From Moesziomyces globuligerus (taxonomy: Eukaryota > Basidiomycota > Ustilaginomycetes > Ustilaginales > Ustilaginaceae): 64,000 bases of DNA. The stretch covers positions 1 through 64,000 of the forward strand of contig JARVLF010000015.1 of assembly GCA_030849465.1 (NCBI GenBank), in the 5' to 3' direction. This document shows, one piece after another, positions 5,581-16,089 of this stretch. Below the pieces are notes generated by a model. That model was not told the DNA's origin. It did no database searches and saw only the letters and a list, made by a program, of their open reading frames with translations. Numbering within the stretch: the stretch's first letter is position 1; every line of letters starts with the position of its first letter. Both the position numbers and the translations under genes were made by a program.

Positions 5581-5645
5581 TAACCCTAACCCTAACCCTA
5601 ACCCTAACCCTAACCCTAACCCTAACCCTAACCCTAACCCTAACC

Positions 5646-5678
<33 letters not shown>
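5581..5678. repeat. Interstitial telomere tract
   Basis: About sixteen near-perfect TAACCC units lie in the same orientation as the terminal telomere. On the left it follows unassigned sequence ending gcgcaccttg. On the right it runs straight into element 2-related DNA (tggctccgcggcc). Its length and purity match the terminal tract, so it looks like a former chromosome end now buried 5.6 kb inside. Confidence 0.92.
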
Positions 5679-5900
5679 GGCTCCGCGGCCAAAGCAGACG
5701 CGCCGCTTCGACAGCGTCGACTCGGCCCCGGGGGAGGCCAAGCGGCGAGGGGATGCCGGCCCAACGGGGGCCGAGGAAGCGGATGGCCCAGCCGAAGAGT
5801 CAGCAGGGCGAGGCGGAGGCAGCGAGGCAGAGGCCGCGCGAGCGGCAGCAGCACGGGCGCGAGTCACGCGCGGAGAGGAGCGCACGGTGGGGGGCGCCAT
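5679..5900 (-). pseudogene. N-terminal fragment of the element 2 opposite-strand gene
   Basis: Starting at the ATG at 5900 (minus strand), the first 60-odd residues closely match the N-terminus of the 503-residue opposite-strand protein of element 2 (MAPPTVRSSPRV against MAPSNVRSSPRV). The frame is shifted by an internal deletion between gcgccgc repeats, and the gene is cut off by telomere repeats at about 5680. No Cys6 region survives. Confidence 0.8.
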
Positions 5901-5974
5901 GGTGAAGAGGGGGATGATGGAGGGGGAGACACGAACACGGCCTCGACGGAGCTCGGCTCTTACGAGGGGGGTAG
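5679..5974 (+). mobile_element. Truncated upstream copy of element 2 (end of internal region)
   Basis: This fragment matches 13930-14258 of element 2: the start of the opposite-strand gene, the region before the polypurine tract and the tract itself (gaggggggtag). It abuts the telomere tract on its left and LTR 1 on its right. Relative to the full copy it has lost roughly 35 bases between two gcgccgc direct repeats. LTR 1 therefore serves as 3' LTR of this fragment and 5' LTR of the full element. Confidence 0.85.
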
Positions 5975-6078
5975 TGTTACAGGCCTGGATCAGACCCTGA
6001 TCGACGCAGGCACATGTGGAGGGCGCTGTTACAGGCCTGGATCAGACCCTGATCGACGCAGGCACGTGTGGAGGGCGC
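5975..6078. repeat. 52-bp tandem duplication at the start of LTR 1
   Basis: Two copies of a 52-bp unit beginning TGTTACAGGCCTGG lie at 5975-6026 and 6027-6078 and differ at one noticed position (cacatgtgg against cacgtgtgg). LTR 2 has one copy. LTR 3 starts just after where the unit would be. Confidence 0.9.
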
Positions 6079-6121
6079 AGGCGAAAATCCGTAGCACGGG
6101 CTACGAGCGCGCCAAGTCGCG

Positions 6122-6189
6122 GTCCGGCGAGTGGAGGCCACTCGACGAATGCCGTCAATAATTCGCCGAGTGAGGCCCACTCGACGGAC
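6122..6189. repeat. Palindrome array, LTR 1 proximal (2 units, 39-bp period)
   Basis: Units at 6122-6150 and 6161-6189. Each has an 11-bp left arm, a 7-nt spacer and an 11-bp right arm, with approximate consensus RTYCGNCGAGT-N7-ACTCGNCGRAY. The spacers are ggaggcc and gaggccc, and the 10-bp linker is gccgtcaata. Equivalent pairs lie in LTR 2 at 14354 and 14393, and in LTR 3 at 15245 and 15284. Confidence 0.88.
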
Positions 6190-6829
6190 GGCCTGCGGCG
6201 ACCCCGGAAAACAACGAGCGGGTCATACGATGGACGTACCCGGCTCGGAGACGAAGGGGAGGAGGAGAGGGGTGCTTGTTGGCCCAGGGGGCAACGAGCG
6301 TAACGTGCAAAGGGGAGTCATGCACGAGAGGAGGCCTGAGCCCGAGGGGGTGGGCGAAACCTCCTGGCATCAATGAGATGCTAGCAGGGGCCGATCGAGA
6401 CGGCACCTTGCCACACGCTGGCCCTCCTGGTGAGGGCAAGTACTTATAGCTTCGACTCATCGAGTGCGATGGGGCTGCGCCCCATCCACTCTACTTTACT
6501 TTACAGCACTCAGTCGTATCATTCGTCAGTATCACTGTCCTTCAGTCAATTCGTCTCACAGTAGCAATCGCAGGGCGTTGCTACTACTTGCGTGTGTGTT
6601 GTATCACCGCTTCAGACGCCGCCGACACCTCCATCGGCGCTACGGCACCTACACCGTAGGCAGTACCTCCACTGCGGCCCTGGAACCTCCACCAGTGCCC
6701 GACAACCGTCTGAGCATTACGAGCACTCGTGCGAAGACGGAAGTCCTTCCCACGACGCCCAAAGGCGTCTGCAGCAATCGAGTCGTGCCGCGCTACCTCT
6801 GAACGGGGTGCTCACAGTGGTCAGCCGAT

Positions 6830-6936
6830 ATCCGTTGAGGCGCCTTGACTCGCCAAATAACTCAGGCGATTCGTCGAGTCCACGCCACTCGCCGAACGAG
6901 TCAAATAATTCGCCGAGTCCACATCACTCGCCGAAT
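6830..6936. repeat. Palindrome array, LTR 1 distal (3 units, 39-bp period)
   Basis: Units at 6830-6858 (worn), 6869-6897 and 6908-6936, each 11+7+11 bp and exactly 39 bp apart. Spacers are cgccttg, ccacgcc and ccacatc; linkers are aactcaggcg and gagtcaaata. The set recurs at 15062/15101/15140 in LTR 2 and 15955/15994/16033 in LTR 3, where the first unit is better kept. Confidence 0.88.
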
Positions 6937-7002
6937 AAGGATTTCGGGCACGCGACCCCTGACATTAGAGTGGATCGTTCAAGCAGCTCCCCACGACTCA
7001 CC

Positions 7003-8430
7003 ATGGCGGACGAGACCCTCGTCAAGAAGCTGGATGAGCTCATCAGCCTGGTCAAAGCCCAGCTCGAGCTCACCAACCGGGCCAATCAAGAGGCCATGAC
7101 GGCCCGAGCCCGCCAGCACCTTGCCGAGCGCCTCTCGCAGGTTCCCGAGGAGCAGGCCGACGAATCCTCGTTCGCCGACCCGCCCACCCCTACGCCTGCG
7201 GCTCGTCCTCGCCGATCGGTGGCCTTCGCTGACGATGGCGAACGCACCTACACCGACCGCGAGACGTACTCGACTCCGACTGGCAGTCGCTACACGAAGC
7301 CAAGGACGGAGGCCGCCTCAGGCGAGGAGGGGTACGATACCATCTCGCTCGAGGATCTTCCGCATAGCCAGCAGAAATCCCTCTCGACGCCCTTCCCCAA
7401 GTTCAACCCCCGTGACGTCGAACTCTTCGTGATCGAGGCCGAGGCCTGGTTCAAATTCAACCGAGTCTACGACCACGAGACGATGATCAACTACACGGGC
7501 ACCCAGCTTGACGGCAGTGCTCGCGAGTGGTGGACCTCCAAGCTCCGAGTCGACCGGCCACGCCAGGGCAAGTTGTTCCACGACTGGCACTTCTTCACGA
7601 AGCGCCTCTCAGAGCAGTACAACCCGCGCAACGTCAGGATGGAGGCCTACAACAAGCTGTTGGCCCTCCGCCTCACTAGCGACACCCCGGGCGCGGCCAC
7701 TCGCCACGTCGAGCGGTTCCGCGATCTCAAGAGCCAGGTCAACCTCGAAGACACCGAGCTGCTCATCGACCTGTTCCGAGGCAGCCTGACTCGCAGCCTG
7801 CAGGAGAAGTTCGAGCGCAACCCGCCCAGCGATCGCTGGGGGTGGTATCGCGAGGTCGAAGAGATCGACAGGCAGAGGATGTCTCTGCAGCAGGCCTCTT
7901 CCAGGCACCCAAGCCTACCGGCCCCGCGCGGGGGCATAGCAGCAAGCCAGCGCCCTGTAGGGCCCGCCGCGGTCAGCCCAGGCCGCCAGCCTGCCCCTCC
8001 GGCGCCTGGCACGCCGTATCGGCCCGGCAACCGGCCCCTGCCGCCGCACTTGGCGCAGAACCTTAGGCCGCGCGCCCCGGCAGGAGGCACAGGGCCCACG
8101 ACGTTTGGTAGCACGGTTTGCCACCTGTGTCAAGGCACGGGCCATTGGGCACGAGACTGCCCAAGCAGGAAGGCACCGCTAGCAACCCCGAGGCCGGCAG
8201 GCCCAAGGGTCGCAGTGACCCTCGAGGACCCGCAACAAGGCGGCCAGCCTCCAGAGGAAGCCGTGGAGGCGGAGCAGGCTGACGATGGTGAGGACTACGG
8301 GTACGACTCGGTCGATCAAGAGCCCCTGGACCTCACCCAGTTCGAAAGTCCGGCTGCGGCCGCCAACCAAGCCGTTCCTCAAGACGACAACGATGACGCC
8401 CAGGAAAACTGCTATGGGGCGATGCACTAA
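7003..8430 (+). CDS. Gag of element 2
   Basis: This 475-residue protein starts at the ATG at 7003, 38 nt after the LTR end. The start opens with a short helical coiled-coil-like stretch (LVKKLDELISLVKAQLEL). The same frame is open upstream through the LTR, but that part would not be in a genomic-type transcript as coding sequence. A retrotransposon Gag core lies around residues 130-290 (EAWFKFN, WWTSKLRV, FLRGSL-like RSLQEKFE). One CCHC zinc knuckle, C-x2-C-x4-H-x4-C (CHLCQGTGHWARDC), lies near residues 373-386, followed by an acidic tail. Gag forms the particle and packages element RNA. The stop overlaps the pol start as TAATG. Confidence 0.9.
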   Translation: MADETLVKKLDELISLVKAQLELTNRANQEAMTARARQHLAERLSQVPEEQADESSFADPPTPTPAARPRRSVAFADDGERTYTDRETYSTPTGSRYTKPRTEAASGEEGYDTISLEDLPHSQQKSLSTPFPKFNPRDVELFVIEAEAWFKFNRVYDHETMINYTGTQLDGSAREWWTSKLRVDRPRQGKLFHDWHFFTKRLSEQYNPRNVRMEAYNKLLALRLTSDTPGAATRHVERFRDLKSQVNLEDTELLIDLFRGSLTRSLQEKFERNPPSDRWGWYREVEEIDRQRMSLQQASSRHPSLPAPRGGIAASQRPVGPAAVSPGRQPAPPAPGTPYRPGNRPLPPHLAQNLRPRAPAGGTGPTTFGSTVCHLCQGTGHWARDCPSRKAPLATPRPAGPRVAVTLEDPQQGGQPPEEAVEAEQADDGEDYGYDSVDQEPLDLTQFESPAAAANQAVPQDDNDDAQENCYGAMH

Positions 8431-11400
8431 TGGCATGCATGGCCCTACATCCCTGGACGCCATCCATCTGTAAATATCAAGATTGCGCTCTTTGTTTCTC
8501 AGCCAGCGACGGCAAGGCGGTGCTCGAGTTGACCGGAACGGTCCAAGGCCACCCGGCTCGCATCCTCGCCGACACCGGCGCTGGCCTGTCCATAGTCTCA
8601 GGTTCGTTCGCCCGCAAACACAAAATACCATCAAAAACAGCAAAAACAACAACAATACATGGTGTCACCGGGCACCAGATGACCACGCGGTCCATGGCGA
8701 TGACCCGTGTAGCGATTGGGGGCCACAACCTCGGCCCGGTGCCCGCGTGGGTAGTGGACGTGGCCGACTACGACTTCATCCTGGGGTATCGGGCCCTACG
8801 CCGGCTCAAACCAACTATCCATTGGGAGACCGGGCAGCTCGAGTTCGAGCTACTAGGGCCGATGCAGGCCTACCATGCCTCCCAAGATGACGGGTCGCTG
8901 CTACCAAAAGCCGTCGAAGAAGGCACACGGCGAATTTCGGTGACATCCGCCGAGTCGCGGCTACTCGACGAACCTCCACATTCGTTCGCCGAGTCGCGCT
9001 CACTCGGCGAATTGCCGCTCCGGTCCGCCGAGCCCACCCCATTTGCCGAACGCCAAATTCCGGCGAGGCTCCACGGCCACGAGTTTGTATCCGCCGAACG
9101 CCTGCTGCAGGCAGCCGTCGAAGACGGCCCAATTGGGTTCATGCTCCTGGAGGAACCATGGGATTCTCTCCCGGCATTCGGTTTTGTGCCTACCGGAGCC
9201 GACAAGGGGGTGGAAATGGAGGTGGAGCCCGACAAGCCGGTGTTGGTCGAAGAGATCCCAGAGCCTTACAGGCATCTGCGAGTCGTCTTCGACGAGGTGG
9301 AAGCAGACCGGCTGCCGCCCCACACGGATCATGACCTCCGCATCGATTTGGTTGAGGGGAGCAAGCCCCCTCAAGGGCCGCTGTACCTCAAGGGGCCCAA
9401 GGAGATGGCAGAGCTACGCAAGTACTTGGACGAGAATCTCGCCAAGGGCTTCATTCGGCCATCAAAGAGCCCGGCGCGGTCACCGGTGCTCTTCGTACCC
9501 AAGAAGGACGGTGGCCTTCGCCTCTGTGTCGACTACAGAGGGCTCAACGAGATTACGATCAAGAACCGCGCGCCACTGCCGCTCATTGAGGAGCAGCTAT
9601 TCCTCCTCCGCAGGGCCAAGATCTACTCGAAGCTGGACCTCAAGGCAGCCTACAACCTGATTCGCATTTCAAGTGGCGATGAATGGAAGACGGCGTTCGG
9701 GACCCAGCTTGGGCTGTACGAGTACTTGGTGATGCCGTTCGGCCTGGCAAATGCGCCAGCACACTTCCAGTCGTTCATCAACCACATCTACCGCGACATC
9801 ATTGGTGTGTATGTGGTGGTGTACTTGGACGACTTCCTCATCTTCAGCGACACACTCGACGAGCACATCAAACACGTCACAGAGGTGCTCACGAGGCTCA
9901 AGCAGCACAGACTCTTCGCCAAGCTGTCCAAGTGTGCTTTTCACACCAACACGGTCGAATTCCTGGGGTACATCATCAAGCCCTCAGGGATCGAGATGGA
10001 CCCAGAGAAGGTCCGCACGGTCAAGGAATGGCCTATGCCGGAGTCGATCCACGACATCCAGCGCTTCCTTGGGTTTGCGAACTTCTACCGGCGGTTCATC
10101 GCTCACTTCGCCCGGATAGCCAAGCCTCTCACGGCCCTGGTGAAGCCAACGGAACGCTTCAAGAAGTTCGAGCTGCCGGAAGACGCCAAGCAGGCCTTCC
10201 ACAAGCTCATACAAGCGTTCACGACGGCAGGAGTGCTAAGACACTTCGATTACCACCTGCCAACGCGGCTCGAGACGGACGCCAGCGACTTTGCCATTGC
10301 CGGGGTCCTGAAGCAGGAGCACGAGGGCCGGTGGCACCCGGTCGCATACTACTCGCGGAAGATGGCGCCCGCCGAGAAGAACTACGAGATCCATGACAAG
10401 GAGCTCCTCGCAGTTGTGGCATGCCTCACCCAGTGGCGCCATATGCTTGCAGGGCTGCCTAGCCAGCTCGTTATTCTCACGGACCACGAGGCGCTCAAGT
10501 ACTTCAAGTCGCAACGCCGCATCACGGGCAGGCAGGCACGCTGGGCGGTGTTGTTAGCAGACTTCAACTTCGTGTTGCAGTACCGGCCAGGGGATAAGGC
10601 CGGCGAGCCTGACGCCCTGACTCGGCGTCGCGACATGGAGCCGGCAGGCGAGGAGCGCGAGCATAACGTGCGGCAACTATTGCCCTCCCGCGTATTTGCG
10701 GTAGAGGACGAGCCAATTCGGCGAGTCCTTGCAACTCGACGAACGTCCGCCGAGTCACCGGAACTCGACGGACGCGCGCCGACCATGGCCAATATCGCCT
10801 CGGAAGGACTGCTAGGCCTCGCCAAGACCTTCCAACCGCTCGATAAAGAGTTGGCCGAGCTGCACGCCAAAACACCGTTCGAGGAGAAGAACGGAGTGTG
10901 GTACAAGGAGGGCCGGTTGGTAGTGCCGAAGGTAACCATGCCAGGTAGCACCACCGACCGCAAGACTCGTCACGCCCGCGAGGTGGACGAGCAGTCGCTG
11001 TCGGTGGAGCACCTTCGCTTCATGGTAATGTCGCAGTGCCATGACGGAGTGGCGGCCGGCCACGTTGGCCGCGACGCCACGCTGCACCTGGCACGACGAC
11101 ACTACTGGTGGCCAGGCATGACAACCTGGATAGCGGACTACGTCGCGAGCTGCCCTGTCTGCGCCAGATACAAAGCGCCCAGACACAAGCCATACGGCTT
11201 GCTGCAGCCACTCGCAACGCCGCAACGGCCATGGGGCTCCATATCGATGGACTTCATCGAAGGCCTGCCGCTGTCGAGCGGGTACGACTCCATCTTGGTA
11301 ATCGTCGACCGCTTGACCAAGTATGCAGTTGTCGCCCCGACGCACAAGACAGCGACAGCCAAGCAAACCGCCGAGCTCCTCAAGCGTCACTTGTTCGCCC

Positions 11401-12290
11401 ACTTTGGCGTCCCGGACCACATTGTGTCGGACAGGGGACGCCAGTTCATCTCGAAGACCTGGAGCGAGTTCGTCAGCAACTTAGGAGCAAGGCACTCACT
11501 CAGCACGGCCTACCACCCGCAGACGGATGGCCAGACGGAGCGTGTCAACCAAGTCCTGGAGCAGTACCTTCGCATGTACTGCAACTACCAGCAGAACGAC
11601 TGGGCTAGCCTGCTCAGCGGGGCCGCTTTCGTCTACAACAACACGGTGCACACGAGCATCGGCGTCTCGCCCTTCTTCGCGTGCTACGGCTGGCACCCAA
11701 AGTCTCACCCGGAGATCCCGGCCAAGCTCGGCGTAAACGACACCAGTCGGGCCGAGTTCTTGGCGCAGGGCAACGAGCGGTTCCACTATCTGCAAGACCA
11801 GATCCGGCAAGCACAACGCCGAGCGGTCGAGCAGTACAACCGCAAGCACAAGGACATCGAGTTCAAGGTCGGCGACCTGGTCTACGTCAACCGAAAGAAC
11901 TGGATGACCAAAAGGCCGTCGCCCAAGCTCGATACGAGGTTCGCCGGCCCATTCCCGGTGAAAGAACGCATCGGCAGACGGGCATATCGCCTCACTTTGC
12001 CCGCAAGCCTCCGCGTGCATGACGTCTTCCACGTCTCGATGCTGGAGCCCGCCAAGAGCAGCGCGCTCCCTCAACGCGAGTTGCTACCGGTGGAACCGCC
12101 TCTGCCGGACGAAGAGCTCGAATACGAGGTGGAGGCCATCATCGGCAAGCGCGTCCGAAACCGCCAGGTCGAATACAAGGTCCTATGGCGCGGCTACTCA
12201 GAGGAAGCATCATCCTGGGAGCCCACCGACCTCCTCAGCTGTCCAGACCTCATCCGGGAGTATGAGGAGTTGGCGGGGGGACGGGCCTAG
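8430..12290 (+). CDS. Pol of element 2: protease, RT, RNase H, integrase, chromodomain
   Basis: The frame gives 1286 residues, open throughout. Aspartic protease shows DTGA at residues 48-51. RT has the catalytic YLDD at 465-468. RNase H begins near 612 (ETDASDFA). The integrase HHCC finger lies near 870-915 (CPVC), and the DDE core carries SMDFIEGLP, SDRGRQF and QTERVNQVLE. A chromodomain at about 1231-1285 (YEVEAII, YKVLWRGYS) ends the protein and is the chromovirus hallmark, thought to guide integration to marked chromatin. Two linkers, between protease and RT and between RNase H and integrase, contain the palindrome arrays. The ATG overlaps the gag stop (TAATG); pol is in the -1 frame to gag, so it could be made by reinitiation or by frameshifting. 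Confidence 0.93.
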   Translation: MACMALHPWTPSICKYQDCALCFSASDGKAVLELTGTVQGHPARILADTGAGLSIVSGSFARKHKIPSKTAKTTTIHGVTGHQMTTRSMAMTRVAIGGHNLGPVPAWVVDVADYDFILGYRALRRLKPTIHWETGQLEFELLGPMQAYHASQDDGSLLPKAVEEGTRRISVTSAESRLLDEPPHSFAESRSLGELPLRSAEPTPFAERQIPARLHGHEFVSAERLLQAAVEDGPIGFMLLEEPWDSLPAFGFVPTGADKGVEMEVEPDKPVLVEEIPEPYRHLRVVFDEVEADRLPPHTDHDLRIDLVEGSKPPQGPLYLKGPKEMAELRKYLDENLAKGFIRPSKSPARSPVLFVPKKDGGLRLCVDYRGLNEITIKNRAPLPLIEEQLFLLRRAKIYSKLDLKAAYNLIRISSGDEWKTAFGTQLGLYEYLVMPFGLANAPAHFQSFINHIYRDIIGVYVVVYLDDFLIFSDTLDEHIKHVTEVLTRLKQHRLFAKLSKCAFHTNTVEFLGYIIKPSGIEMDPEKVRTVKEWPMPESIHDIQRFLGFANFYRRFIAHFARIAKPLTALVKPTERFKKFELPEDAKQAFHKLIQAFTTAGVLRHFDYHLPTRLETDASDFAIAGVLKQEHEGRWHPVAYYSRKMAPAEKNYEIHDKELLAVVACLTQWRHMLAGLPSQLVILTDHEALKYFKSQRRITGRQARWAVLLADFNFVLQYRPGDKAGEPDALTRRRDMEPAGEEREHNVRQLLPSRVFAVEDEPIRRVLATRRTSAESPELDGRAPTMANIASEGLLGLAKTFQPLDKELAELHAKTPFEEKNGVWYKEGRLVVPKVTMPGSTTDRKTRHAREVDEQSLSVEHLRFMVMSQCHDGVAAGHVGRDATLHLARRHYWWPGMTTWIADYVASCPVCARYKAPRHKPYGLLQPLATPQRPWGSISMDFIEGLPLSSGYDSILVIVDRLTKYAVVAPTHKTATAKQTAELLKRHLFAHFGVPDHIVSDRGRQFISKTWSEFVSNLGARHSLSTAYHPQTDGQTERVNQVLEQYLRMYCNYQQNDWASLLSGAAFVYNNTVHTSIGVSPFFACYGWHPKSHPEIPAKLGVNDTSRAEFLAQGNERFHYLQDQIRQAQRRAVEQYNRKHKDIEFKVGDLVYVNRKNWMTKRPSPKLDTRFAGPFPVKERIGRRAYRLTLPASLRVHDVFHVSMLEPAKSSALPQRELLPVEPPLPDEELEYEVEAIIGKRVRNRQVEYKVLWRGYSEEASSWEPTDLLSCPDLIREYEELAGGRA
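8945..9051. repeat. Palindrome array inside pol, protease-RT linker (3 units)
   Basis: Units at 8945-8973, 8984-9012 and 9023-9051 (worn), spaced exactly 39 bp. Spacers are cgcggct, cgcgctc and ccacccc. Arms of the middle unit (TTCGCCGAGT / ACTCGGCGAA) pair perfectly over 10 bp. The array translates as a Ser/Glu/Leu-rich linker and disrupts no enzyme domain. Confidence 0.88.
10716..10773. repeat. Palindrome pair inside pol, RNase H-integrase linker (2 units)
   Basis: Units at 10716-10744 and 10745-10773 abut with no linker, so the step is 29 bp instead of 39. Spacers are ccttgca and caccgga. The two units lie in different codon phases of pol, so the conserved arms do not encode one conserved peptide. 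Confidence 0.88.
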
Positions 12291-12335
12291 ACAGGCGGCG
12301 GGGAAGGAGCGCGGCGGAGGGGGCGCTCAGAGGGG

Positions 12336-12442
12336 ATTCGGCGAGTATAGCGGACTCGACGAATTTGCAGGATGATTCGGCGAGTCGAGGCGACTCGACG
12401 AATTGCAAACTCGATCCGCCGAGTGCGCGTCACTCGGCGGAT
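12336..12442. repeat. Palindrome array in the 3' non-coding region of element 2 (3 units)
   Basis: Units at 12336-12364, 12375-12403 and 12414-12442, exactly 39 bp apart. Spacers are atagcgg, cgaggcg and gcgcgtc. The third unit pairs perfectly (ATCCGCCGAGTG / CACTCGGCGGAT). The array lies between the pol stop (12290) and the end of the opposite-strand gene (12608), so it would be in both 3' UTRs if those transcripts converge. Confidence 0.9.
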
Positions 12443-12607
12443 AGGGAAACAGCCCGACGCGAAGACCAGGAGGGCAACAACAAGCACACAGCCAGGGGAC
12501 TCAACGACCAGAAGCTCGCTCAGGCTGGTCGCAGGCAAGCTCAACGGGGACAGGTCACAGTCTCACACAAGCAAGAAGAGCCAAGACGCTGGGATTATCT
12601 CACGTCG

Positions 12608-14184
12608 CTACATGTCGATGTAAGAGCCGTCGCTGGGGCCCGGAGGGAAGACGGGCTCGTCAATAGGGTCAGGGGCCCCACCAGACACGGCGACGGACTC
12701 GTGCGGCTGACGCTCCGAGTATAGCGAGTGCCAACACTCCGAGAAGCGCAGCATCACCCGCAGCAGGGGAAGGCGCAGGCGGGCCGCCTGGATCCGGAAT
12801 ACTCGGCGGGTCGCAACGGTCCAACCGAAGGTCTCGGTCGGGATGGTCATCCGGTCGTACGACCGAATGGCGCCTGGCCCGGGAGCACCGGCCACCGACA
12901 AGTTGGCACGCTCGGCACGTTGGCGCGAGCGACCCGTGGGAGTGCCGTCGCCCGGGTACTCCATCCCGGGGAAGGCGCGAATGCTCCGCTTGCAGTTGCC
13001 AACGTCGGCAAGGTGGCAGTGAGTGCACACCCGCGGAAGGCGACTACGCTCCCCGTACGGGTTGGGGAACGCCGAGGGGAAGCAACTGTGAAGGAGAGGA
13101 GAAGGTCAGCAACCGCCAAGGCAAAAGCACGAGCAGGGCACAATACTTACGGGACTCCCAGGTCAGCGCACCGGCGGCACTGCCAACTCGGCCAAGGCAT
13201 GCAGCCCTCGGTCAAGCGCATCATGACGATGCGCTGTAGCCGCTGCTCGGCGTTAGAGCCCGCCGCGACGAGCCAGTTCCGAGGGTATCGACCCTCGGCC
13301 ACGCGCACCAACAAGTCGGCAACCTCGTACTGCCCCGACCAGCCGATGATCTCGGCATGCGACGGCTCGCGTTGGTCGGGGGGCGGCGGCGACGGGGTGC
13401 GAGGCACCTCCCACCGAGGGGGAGGCGTCAGTCGCTGCACATCCCGCTCGAAGACGGGTGTGGCAGACCGACCGAGGGGCGGGGAAGGCTCAGCGCGGCC
13501 GGGAGACGTGGGGACGACGGCCTCGATGCCGTCGGAAGCAGCCACCGGGGACGAGGGGACCACGTAGACGGCCCCCCAGCGCTCCAGCTGCTCCCCCAGC
13601 GACAACCCAACCGCAGCAGCTCGACGCTCGCGGTTGAGACGCGCCTCCTCGGCCGCCGCAGCCATGCCCTCCGCGGTCGGGGACGGCGGGGAGTACGACG
13701 GCGACCGCGGCTCGGAGACCAGCGCCGGGCTGGCCGGCACGGGGGGCGGCGACCAAGGGGCGTACACCGGGCTCCGAGGCGGCGACAGCGGGGCAGGGCT
13801 GCCCGAAGCCAGGCCGCTGGACGGCGGGGAGCCCAGGAAAAGGGCCTCCAGCGGCGCACAGCCACTGGAGTCGGGGGCCGAGGCGGATGCAGCCCGCGGC
13901 GGCGGCGGGGTGACGGCCGGCACGGGGGCTGACTCCGCGGCCGAAGCAGACGCGCCGCGCGGGCGCAGGCGCGAAGTGACCTTGCGCCGCTTCGACAGTG
14001 CCGACTCGGCCCCAGGGGAGGCCAAGCGGCGAGGAGATGCCGGCCCAACGGGGGCCGAGGAAGCGGATGGCCCGGCCAAGGAGTCGGCAGGGCGAGGAGG
14101 AGGCAGCGAGGCGGAGGCCGCGCGAGCGGCAGCCGCACGGGCGCGGGTCACGCGCGGGGAGGAGCGCACGTTGGAGGGCGCCAT
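12608..14184 (-). CDS. Opposite-strand two-exon Cys6 protein gene of element 2
   Basis: I model exon 1 as 14184-13151 and exon 2 as 13085-12608 (minus strand), with a 65-nt GTAAGT...CACAG intron in phase 2, giving 503 residues. The N-terminal two thirds are Ser/Pro/Ala-rich with many SP dipeptides. A folded-looking segment follows near residues 275-345. The Cys6 motif spans the splice junction near residues 338-381: C-x2-C-x6-C-x18-C-x2-C-x7-C, preceded by an extra Cys seven residues upstream. Without splicing, a stop falls right after the first half of the motif. The ATG lies 75 bp from the LTR, so its promoter should be in the 3' LTR, read backwards. The motif spacing matches the element 1 gene except for the central loop. 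Function unknown; zinc binding is inferred. Confidence 0.72.
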
Positions 14185-14248
14185 GGTGAAGACGGGGATG
14201 GTGGAGAGAGAGACACGAACACGGCCTCGACGGAGCTCGGCTCTTACG

Positions 14249-14258
14249 AGGGGGGTAG
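14249..14258 (+). other. Polypurine tract of element 2
   Basis: aggggggtag immediately precedes LTR 2 at 14259 and recurs before LTR 1 (tacgagggggg at 5961-5971). This is the expected plus-strand primer position. Confidence 0.7.
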
Positions 14259-15196
14259 TGTTACAGGCCTGGATCAGACCCTGATCGACGCAGGCACGTG
14301 TGGAGGGCGCAGGCGAAAATCCGTAGCACGGGCTACGAGCGCGCCAAGTCGCGGTCCGGCGAGTGGAGGCCACTCGACGAATGCCGTCAATAATTCGCCG
14401 AGTGAGGCCCACTCGACGGACGGCCTGCGGCGACCCCGGAAAACAACGAGCGGGTCATACGATGGACGTACCCGGCTCGGAGACGAAGGGGAGGAGGAGA
14501 GGGGTGCTTGTTGGCCCAGGGGGCAACGAGCGTAACGTGCAAAGGGGAGTCATGCACGAGAGGAGGCCTGAGCCCGAGGGGGTGGGCGAAACCTCCTGGC
14601 ATCAATGAGATGCTAGCAGGGGCCGATCGAGACGGCACCTTGCCACACGCTGGCCCTCCTGGTGAGGGCAAGTACTTATAGCTTCGACTCATCGAGTGCG
14701 ATGGGGCTGCGCCCCATCCACTCTACTTTACTTTACAGCACTCAGTCGTATCATTCGTCAGTATCACTGTCCTTCAGTCAATTCGTCTCACAGTAGCAAT
14801 CGCAGGGCGTTGCTACTACTTGCGTGTGTGTTGTATCACCGCTTCAGACGCCGCCGACACCTCCATCGGCGCTACGGCACCTACACCGTAGGCAGTACCT
14901 CCACTGCGGCCCTGGAACCTCCACCAGTGCCCGACAACCGTCTGAGCATTACGAGCACTCGTGCGAAGACGGAAGTCCTTCCCACGACGCCCAAAGGCGT
15001 CTGCAGCAATCGAGTCGTGCCGCGCTACCTCTGAACGGGGTGCTCACAGTGGTCAGCCGATATCCGTTGAGGCGCCTTGACTCGCCAAATAACTCAGGCG
15101 ATTCGTCGAGTCCACGCCACTCGCCGAACGAGTCAAATAATTCGCCGAGTCCACATCACTCGCCGAATAAGGATTTCGGGCACGCGACCCCTGACA
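14259..15196 (+). repeat. LTR 2 (3' LTR) of element 2 (938 bp)
   Basis: Starts TGTTACAGG after the polypurine tract and ends CCCCTGACA. It equals LTR 1 minus the 52-bp duplication, and the frames I compared across both were identical. It is followed without any gap by LTR 3. Its minus strand is the likely promoter for the opposite-strand gene whose ATG is at 14184. Confidence 0.93.
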
Positions 15197-16089
15197 GGCG
15201 CAGGCAAAAATCCGTAGCAGGAGCTACGAGCGCGCCAAGTCGCGGTCCGGCAAGTGGAGGCCACTCGACGAATGCCGTCAATAATTCGCCGAGTGAGGCC
15301 CACTCGACGGACGGCCTGCGGCGACCCCGGAAAACAACGAGCGGGTCATACGATGGACGTACCCGGCTCGGAGACGAAGGGGAGGAGGAGAGGGGTGCTT
15401 GTTGGCCCAGGGGGCAACGAGCGTAACGTGCAAAGGGGAGCCATGCACGAGAGGAGGCCTGAGCCCGAGGGGGTGGGCGAAACCTCCTGGCATCAATGAG
15501 ATGCTAGCAGGGGCCGTTCGAGACGGCACCTTGCCACACGCTGGCCCTCCTGGTGAGGGCAAGTACTTATAGCTTCGACTCATCGAGTGCGATGGGGCTG
15601 CGCCCCATCCACTCTACTTTACTTTACATCACTCAGGCGTTATCATTCGTCAGTATCACTGTCTTTCAGTCCACTCGTCTCACAGTAGCAATCGCAGGGC
15701 GTTGCTACTACTTGCGTGTGTGTTGTATCACCGCTTCAGACGTCGTCGACACCCTCATCGACGCTACGGCACCTACACCGTAGGCAGTACCTCCACTGCG
15801 GCCCTGGAACCTCAACCAGTGCCTCGACAACTGTCTGAGCATTACGAGCACTCGTGCAAAGACGGAAGTCCTTCCCACGACGCCCAAAGGCGTCTGCAGC
15901 AATCGAGTCGTGCCGCGCTACCTCTGAACGGGGTGCTCACAGTGGTCAGCCGATATCCGTTGAGTTGCGTCGACTCGCCGAATAACTCAGGCGATTCGTC
16001 GAGTCCACGCCACTCGCCGAACGAGTCAAATAATTTGCCGAGTCCACGTCACTCGCCGAATAAGGATTTTGGGCACGCGACCCCTGACA
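15197..16089 (+). repeat. LTR 3, 5'-truncated copy (893 bp)
   Basis: This copy begins at ggcgcaggca, which corresponds to LTR position about 48, so the TGTTAC terminus is missing. It ends CCCCTGACA at 16089. It differs from LTRs 1 and 2 at scattered sites (for example ggagccatg for ggagtcatg, and several small changes after 15600), so it is older or came from a sister lineage. It carries the same five palindrome units. Confidence 0.9.

What the first reader, a model, noticed from the sequence alone, without database searches (positions are those of the whole stretch)
6122..16061. A 29-bp palindrome with a fixed 7-nt spacer recurs at least 23 times through element 2
The sequence shows units of RTYCGNCGAGT-N7-ACTCGNCGRAY in five places: LTR start (2 units), LTR end (3), the protease-RT linker of pol (3), the RNase H-integrase linker of pol (2) and the 3' non-coding region (3). 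With three LTR copies that makes 23. The spacer is always 7 nt and not conserved in sequence. Within arrays the step is exactly 39 bp (29 in one pair) while the 10-bp linkers are unrelated. Simple tandem duplication would keep the linkers alike, so arms and spacing look selected. In pol the units lie in different codon phases, so a conserved peptide is not the reason. I saw none in element 1. A dimeric protein-binding site or an RNA hairpin used in packaging, priming or silencing are candidate roles.
Basis: seen in the sequence. Interest (0 to 1): 0.88.

Follow-up and report, generated by a model that had tools for sequence, protein, structure and literature searches.

The report
Palindrome arrays in a smut retrotransposon
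A smut-fungus jumping gene carries spread-out arrays of one palindromic DNA signal, kept in the copies examined and hinted at in related species, which looks like the landing site of a paired DNA-binding protein, perhaps one the element makes itself.

Summary
All 23 units lie at 6122-16061 (17 exact; 0.07 expected by chance); the core has 221/212 matches in the 18.5-Mb genome against 5/4 for a control. The carrier is a self-priming Ty3/gypsy chromovirus of a smut fungus. All 38 LTRs read keep the U3 pair at step 39 and 37 keep all five units. Outside CpG, fixed arm letters changed in 5 of 1420 cells against 937 of 21189 elsewhere in the LTR. Degenerate letters of the two arms do not co-vary, which speaks for a dimeric DNA site rather than an RNA stem. 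Codon scans suggest the same unit in the same pol linkers of elements from other sources; U. hordei-group pol lacks it. Best explanation: the arrays are operators for a dimeric regulator, most likely ORF3. Binding is inferred, not shown; structure predictions failed and no known family matched. New variant of a known kind.

The parts
6027..6964 (+). 5' LTR (TGTTACAGG...CCTGACA); U3 about 6027-6483, R-U5 about 6484-6964
   Evidence: 100% identical to 14259-15196; 5-bp duplication GGCGC
6122..6189 (.). U3 array, 2 palindromes, step 39
   Evidence: kept in 38 of 38 LTRs read
6484..6493 (+). ATCCACTCTA, complementary to the letters after the LTR: presumed transcript start used for self-priming
   Evidence: 38 of 38 LTRs read
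6830..6936 (.). U5/leader array, 3 palindromes, step 39 (first one degenerate)
   Evidence: all three units in 37 of 38 LTRs read, the 38th is cut short
6966..6975 (+). self-priming primer-binding site (TAGAGTGGAT within TTAGAGTGGATCG)
   Evidence: same letters in 7 of 7 other copies printed
7003..8430 (+). gag (first ATG after the LTR, in frame; Retrotrans_gag, CCHC knuckle)
8430..12290 (+). pol: protease, RT, RNase H, integrase, SH3_Tf2-1, chromodomain
8945..9051 (.). array in the protease-RT linker of pol, 3 palindromes, step 39
   Evidence: 13 copies
10716..10773 (.). array in the RNase H-integrase linker of pol, 2 palindromes, step 29
   Evidence: 12 copies; 0 of 320 fixed-arm cells changed
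12336..12442 (.). array between the convergent ends of pol and ORF3, 3 palindromes, step 39
   Evidence: 11 copies; two have one 11-bp linker
12608..14184 (-). antisense gene ORF3, 503 aa; exon 1 14184-13151, intron 13150-13086 (GT..AG, predicted), exon 2 13085-12608; Cys pattern C-x7-C-x2-C-x6-C-x18-C-x2-C-x7-C
   Evidence: intron place agrees with homologs P0001, P0011, P0012, P0133, P0138
14259..15196 (+). 3' LTR
14354..14421 (.). U3 array of the 3' LTR, 170-237 bp upstream of the ORF3 ATG
15062..15168 (.). U5 array of the 3' LTR
15197..16089 (+). rest of an older LTR interrupted by the element (its start is 5974-6026)
15245..15312 (.). U3 array of the older LTR
15955..16061 (.). U5 array of the older LTR

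Best explanation
Each 29-bp unit is a binding site for a homodimeric DNA-binding protein: two inverted half-sites ACTCG[ACG]CGRAY held 7 bp apart, stacked in arrays of two or three. The most likely binder is the element's own antisense protein ORF3, a zinc-cluster-like factor. It would bind the U3 array, which lies between the sense start and the ORF3 gene, and the arrays set every 1.6-2.1 kb through the body, to keep the element's chromatin open for transcription (self-encoded activation or anti-silencing), mostly in subtelomeres. Shown: arrays, geometry, conservation, ORF3 as a selected protein gene. Inferred: that sites act as DNA, that a dimer binds, that the binder is ORF3, that the effect is activating.
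For: Arms and spacing kept. Fixed non-CpG arm letters 5/1420 changed against 937/21189. Partner degenerate positions vary independently, 6/24 complementary in 2 of 13 units against 3.4 expected. ORF3: exon-2 pN/pS 0.091 in 11 distinct copies, close to RT 0.058; full seven-Cys spacing in 10 of 12 homologs tested, P0135 lacking the first Cys and P0138 starting at exon 2. Units compatible with the motif at the same pol linkers in P0013 (4), P0060 (2), P0072 (1) against 23 in 454,344 position-frames counted as outside linkers; 13-residue = 39-bp period in several linkers. Array gaps 2115, 1747, 1644, 1998 bp are more even than random (P about 0.002, a test made after the fact).
Against: No direct evidence of binding. 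ORF3 has no Pfam or PDB-sequence match and both structure models are poor (mean pLDDT 42 and 44). Its 18-residue middle loop exceeds the recalled 5-12 of Zn2Cys6 clusters. Ustilago hordei has ORF3 relatives but compact pol linkers without units in the pol homologs listed; its LTRs could not be read. The element-1 family also has an antisense six-Cys ORF but no such arrays. No Melanopsichium ORF3 relative was listed (each scored only the best ~8000 candidates). In the protease-RT array, fixed arm letters vary nearly as much as the flanks (pi 0.077 against 0.087).
Confidence: 0.45

Rival explanations
1. A host dimeric DNA-binding protein recognises the arrays, and the element has gathered its sites to recruit transcription or chromatin factors, or the host uses them for silencing or subtelomere organisation.
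For: 35 of 40 LTRs with known contig length lie within 35 kb of a contig end. ORF3 relatives occur in U. hordei, whose listed pol homologs lack the units. The element-1 family has an antisense six-Cys ORF without arrays.
Against: No excess of the palindrome outside this family was seen: the isolated hits in the cut list are as rare as the control. A silencing site would not be expected to be kept by the element.
Confidence: 0.3
2. The units are RNA hairpins of the genomic transcript, for packaging, dimerisation or priming.
For: The five arrays fold better than the mean of 200 shuffles (z -2.2 to -5.4; 0 to 3 shuffles as good); the U5 array is in the RNA leader near the self-priming site.
Against: Any palindrome folds. 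Paired degenerate positions do not co-vary; the U3 array of the 5' LTR lies upstream of the presumed transcript start, though the 3' one is transcribed; units are spread over the whole RNA.
Confidence: 0.08
3. Inverted sites of a site-specific recombinase or of the integrase, acting on DNA ends or element excision.
For: Two inverted ~11-bp arms around a short core resemble tyrosine-recombinase core sites (recalled).
Against: Spacers differ between the 13 unit types, where a recombinase overlap would have to match; no recombinase domain in gag, pol or ORF3 by Pfam; 6 of 7 LTR pairs carry 5-bp duplications, and the 30-bp flanks printed hold no unit.
Confidence: 0.05
4. A minisatellite-like repeat that spreads by slippage or gene conversion, without function.
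For: Arms alike between units, linkers hypervariable (pi 0.23), third protease-RT unit degenerate in the window's subfamily, weak arm-flank contrast in that array.
Against: Linkers and spacers differ while arms and exact spacing stay; LTR arms resist change about twelvefold outside CpG; same linkers used in other species.
Confidence: 0.07

Closest known systems
VANC proteins and their motif arrays in Arabidopsis VANDAL transposons (Hosaka et al. 2017, PMC5735166; abstract start and passages seen)
   Same: A short motif accumulated in arrays inside one transposon family and rare elsewhere; an element-encoded protein binds it there (shown for VANC, proposed here).
   Different: VANDALs are DNA transposons (recalled); motif YAGTATTAY is arrayed in one orientation and mainly non-coding. 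Here the site is a 29-bp palindrome with fixed spacing, also inside pol, in an LTR retrotransposon of a fungus; no sequence relation between VANC and ORF3 was tested.
Retand LTR retrotransposons of plants (Vicient 2025, PMC11963269; passages seen)
   Same: Antisense ORF between pol and 3' LTR predicted to bind DNA, and tandem repeats in that region in about half of the elements.
   Different: Retand is a non-chromovirus lineage with a TRP28 domain; repeats are family-specific and of unknown function. No TRP28 match here.
Antisense additional ORFs of Grande, RIRE2 and fungal Boty (Vicient and Casacuberta 2020, PMC7264820; parts 1-2 of 3 read)
   Same: Antisense gene between pol and 3' LTR, conserved like other element genes.
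   Different: No palindrome arrays described in the parts read; functions unknown there.
Tf1/sushi chromoviruses (recalled)
   Same: Self-priming start, SH3_Tf2-1 and chromodomain, 5-bp duplication.
   Different: Recalled Tf1 has no antisense gene and no palindrome arrays.
Zn(II)2Cys6 fungal regulators such as Gal4 (recalled)
   Same: Two C-x2-C-x6/7-C halves; typically bind inverted half-sites at fixed spacing as dimers.
   Different: Middle loop of 18, no Pfam match, no strict CGG triplet in the half-site.

Membership tests
Ty3/gypsy chromovirus, Tf1/sushi group | RT and RNase H before integrase, C-terminal chromodomain | tested here: met
Ty3/gypsy chromovirus, Tf1/sushi group | self-priming: transcript start complementary to the primer-binding site | tested here: met
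   10 bp complementary, LTR side in 38 of 38 LTRs read; the start itself is not mapped
Ty3/gypsy chromovirus, Tf1/sushi group | 5-bp target duplication | tested here: met
   6 of 7 LTR pairs
Zn(II)2Cys6 regulators | C-x2-C-x6-C-x5-12-C-x2-C-x6-8-C (recalled) | tested here: not met
   loop is 18 in 10 of 12 homologs tested, the other two giving no full match; the halves fit
Zn(II)2Cys6 regulators | match to a curated zinc-cluster model | tested here: not met
   no Pfam match to E 10 apart from one RHS hit at 0.08 in P0002
Zn(II)2Cys6 regulators | binuclear zinc fold | tested here: inconclusive
   models at mean pLDDT 42 and 44; Foldseek gave 2 matches, both E 9.5
VANDAL/VANC anti-silencing system | element-specific motif arrays | tested here: met
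VANDAL/VANC anti-silencing system | element-encoded protein binds the motif and removes silencing | not testable with these tools
   needs binding and chromatin assays
VANDAL/VANC anti-silencing system | Mutator-like DNA transposon (recalled) | tested here: not met
   LTR retrotransposon
Retand | antisense ORF with TRP28 (PF04195) | tested here: not met
   antisense ORF present, no TRP28 match

The most novel reading that the evidence does not exclude
An LTR retrotransposon that carries its own sequence-specific chromatin regulator and has spread that regulator's dimeric operators evenly through itself, even inside the pol reading frame, so that the factor can coat and protect every copy of the family and no host gene: a retrotransposon counterpart of VANC anti-silencing, co-evolving across smut fungi.
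Probability: 0.3. Interest if true: 0.85.

Novelty: new variant of a known kind. Interest (0 to 1): 0.62.

Why it matters
The function of antisense genes of LTR retrotransposons was called unknown in a 2020 review (PMC7264820). Here one sits in an element that also carries a well-defined, strongly kept palindromic site (13 unit types), which turns 'what does the antisense protein do' into a plain binding test. If ORF3 binds, it would show that retrotransposons, like VANDAL DNA transposons, can evolve family-specific self-recognition, with operators tolerated within coding sequence.

Tried and rejected
Same arrays in element 1 or its relatives: in 11 pol-related loci scanned to 5 mismatches only L056 had units, and those lie in the neighbouring LTR of this family; k-mer tables of element 1, L069 and L070 show nothing of that kind. 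Isolated near-palindromes shared by L053 and L054 (such as CGTCGGAGA..TCTCCGACG) have no fixed spacing and form no array. Reading DNA of other smuts: viral contigs by palindrome pattern 0 matches, by pol 1 candidate and none confirmed, by ORF3 profile 19 candidates and none confirmed; genome contigs 48 candidates and none confirmed. So cross-species evidence rests on proteins only. ORF3 fold: two AlphaFold jobs with 12 sequences each, both low confidence, and a PDB fold search of the second with two matches at E 9.5. 13-residue period (12 linkers tested): strong in the protease-RT linkers of W, P0060, P0013 (0 of 500 shuffles) and the RNase H-integrase linkers of P0014 and P0125 (1 and 2 of 500); top lag but weak in P0082 protease-RT (32 of 500) and P0013 RNase H-integrase (66 of 500); not the top lag in P0014 protease-RT (lag 23), in the RNase H-integrase linkers of W, P0060, P0072, or in the U. 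hordei linker. P0014 and P0125 carry the period without motif-compatible units. background: 18 of its 23 hits are one shared peptide in related proteins, and one (P0063) lies in a protein whose linkers my patterns did not locate, so the rate is not built from independent cases. Literature: smut antisense ORFs 0 papers; smut gypsy/centromere terms 21 papers, 10 seen as a listing; self-encoded LTR regulators 13, 10 seen as a listing; palindrome plus antisense terms 2; Moesziomyces retrotransposon 3; zinc-cluster dimer sites 0. None of the listings describes this system; of the smut papers I opened only PMC9603552 (passages), which holds none of the words palindrom-, antisense or chromodomain. 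Most subscription papers are not in that library.
Full report
What the thing is. The window begins with telomeric CCCTAA repeats and is the end of contig C15 of an 18.5-Mb, 24-contig genome. Named ORF3 relatives are all Ustilago (each search scored only the roughly 8000 best candidates), so the host is a smut fungus; its genus is not given by any tool. The element runs 6027-15196 with identical 938-bp LTRs. Gag and a 1286-residue pol (protease, RT, RNase H, integrase, SH3_Tf2-1, chromodomain) make it a Ty3/gypsy chromovirus. Letters right after the LTR are complementary to ATCCACTCTA at 6484, present in 38 of 38 LTRs read: the Tf1-type self-priming arrangement (the comparison with Tf1 is recalled). 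It sits in an older LTR of its own family with the 5-bp duplication GGCGC; 6 of 7 LTR pairs examined have such duplications.

The observation. One search finds 23 units, 17 exact, all in this stretch, against 0.07 expected. In the genome the core has 221/212 matches against 5/4 for the reversed control. One search lists 47 LTR matches, a lower bound, 41 of them long; I read 38 of the 41 (three were in no fetched locus). All 38 keep the U3 pair at step 39 and 37 have the three U5 units at step 39, the other being cut short. Internal arrays were read in 13 (protease-RT), 12 (RNase H-integrase) and 11 (after pol) copies; copies in which BLAST covered less than 90% of the stretch were dropped. The layout is the same in all of these except one 11-bp linker in two. 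Over all loci, 456 exact half-sites give spacer 7 in 187 of 193 left-right neighbours and 46 in six that skip a degenerate half.

Is it selected? In 34 distinct LTRs, fixed arm letters outside CpG differ from the commonest letter in 5 of 1420 cells, other LTR letters in 937 of 21189, spacer and linker letters in 141 of 1686. CpG sites decay almost alike, 9.0% in arms and 11.3% elsewhere, so the plain diversity of fixed arm letters (0.043 against 0.071 for random windows; 367 of 5000 as low) is a much weaker contrast. C-to-T change is strongest in TCG (7.6%; TCC 4.6%, CCC 3.9%, CCG 2.9%, ACG 2.1%, GCG 1.3%). Internally, fixed arm letters changed in 0 of 320 cells (RNase H-integrase) and 6 of 480 (after pol) against about 2% in flanks, but in 30 of 576 (5.2%) against 6.0% of flank letters in the protease-RT array, where the contrast is small. 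In that array one subfamily has diverged by about 15% and still keeps the step and most arm letters.

DNA or RNA? The 13 unit types of the window vary at positions 1/29, 3/27 and 6/24. If the unit were a stem, partners should change together. They do not: complementary pairs number 7, 8 and 2 of 13 against 6.7, 6.8 and 3.4 expected by shuffling. The arrays fold better than the shuffle mean (z -2.2 to -5.4), as a palindrome must. I therefore read the unit as two independent half-sites ACTCG[ACG]CGRAY for a dimer. Arm letters that never change cannot speak for or against a stem.

The missing gene. Between pol and the 3' LTR an antisense gene runs from 14184 to 12608 with one predicted intron (13150-13086). 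Exon 2 in the 13 copies examined (11 distinct) is open and shows pooled pN/pS 0.091, near that of an RT piece in 11 distinct copies (0.058). Homologs number 12 and 14 (8 shared). Unspliced ones end (P0011, P0012, P0133, P0137) or begin (P0138) at the same splice site. Of 12 homologs tested, 10 show C-x7-C-x2-C-x6-C-x18-C-x2-C-x7-C; P0135 has Trp for the first Cys and P0138 covers exon 2 only; gene models P0008 and P0010 lack part of the stretch. The last six cysteines resemble the two halves of a fungal zinc cluster, but the loop is too long for the recalled rule and no family or structure search confirms it. The U3 array sits 170-237 bp before the ORF3 start and 295-362 bp before the presumed sense start, in what may be a shared regulatory stretch.

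Other species. Of 508 pol homologs 120 are listed. I located the protease-RT linker in 103 and the RNase H-integrase linker in 102 of these: 95 of 103 have 28 residues and 93 of 102 have 35, where this element has 75 and 48. Longer linkers in P0060 (U. trichophora), P0013 (unnamed) and P0014/P0125 have a 13-residue, hence 39-bp, period, though not in every linker. A codon-compatibility scan of the 16 fixed core letters, at most one mismatch, gives 23 hits in 454,344 position-frames counted as outside linkers in 121 proteins, but 4 in the linkers of P0013, 2 in P0060 and 1 in P0072 (Melanopsichium), and none in the located linkers of the rest; shuffled linkers reach these counts in 0, 6 and 38 of 2000 trials. 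The P0072 case alone is weak. The simplest reading is that units exist at the same linkers in at least two other smut elements; DNA is needed to prove it.

How it most likely works. Arrays occupy the LTR ends, the pol-ORF3 boundary and two pol linkers, but not the gag-pol boundary, at gaps of 1.6-2.1 kb through the body, more even than three random points would be (P about 0.002, post hoc). Together with an element-encoded, selected, antisense protein this recalls VANC, whose motif arrays let a transposon protein recognise its own family and remove silencing (PMC5735166, passages). Of 40 LTRs with known contig length, 35 lie within 35 kb of contig ends, where silencing is likely (inference). 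I put 0.45 on ORF3 as dimeric binder with a positive effect, 0.3 on a host protein.

What is not shown. No binding, no expression and no structure. U. hordei has ORF3 relatives while its listed pol homologs lack the units, and element 1 has an antisense six-Cys ORF without arrays. Either could mean that ORF3 has another target.

Noticed in passing
window 3596 (minus strand), L069 8152 (minus), L070 2410 (plus): The element-1 family also has an antisense ORF with C-x2-C-x6-C-x8-C-x2-C-x7-C, a spacing that does fit the recalled Zn2Cys6 rule; no operator array found for it.
   Followed up: partly
window 6484-6493 and 6966-6975: Tf1-type self-priming signal; the LTR side is kept in 38 of 38 LTRs read.
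   Followed up: yes
LTR copies genome-wide: C-to-T change is strongest in TCG (7.6%), like a repeat-directed mutation process with TCG preference.
   Followed up: partly
U3 and U5 arrays of the LTRs: The 10-bp linkers are about 3.5 times more variable than the rest of the LTR (pi 0.23 against 0.067) yet keep their length; cause unknown.
   Followed up: no
L069 2042-2260 (C9:4141-4359): Another tandem repeat of about 22 bp (TTTTGAAGCGGACCGTCTT-like); the flanks of the C11:474610 copy look like the same repeat.
   Followed up: no
C21:532773-550183: Three LTRs in a row enclose two pol regions, with one 5-bp duplication outside, as after LTR-LTR recombination.
   Followed up: no
window 5581-5680: Internal block of telomeric repeats between element 1 and a broken ORF3-LTR piece (ORF3 match 5688-5900).
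   Followed up: no
L053 3032 and L054 1334: Shared near-palindromes in the element-1 family (arms such as CGTCGGAGA/TCTCCGACG), single and without fixed spacing.
   Followed up: no
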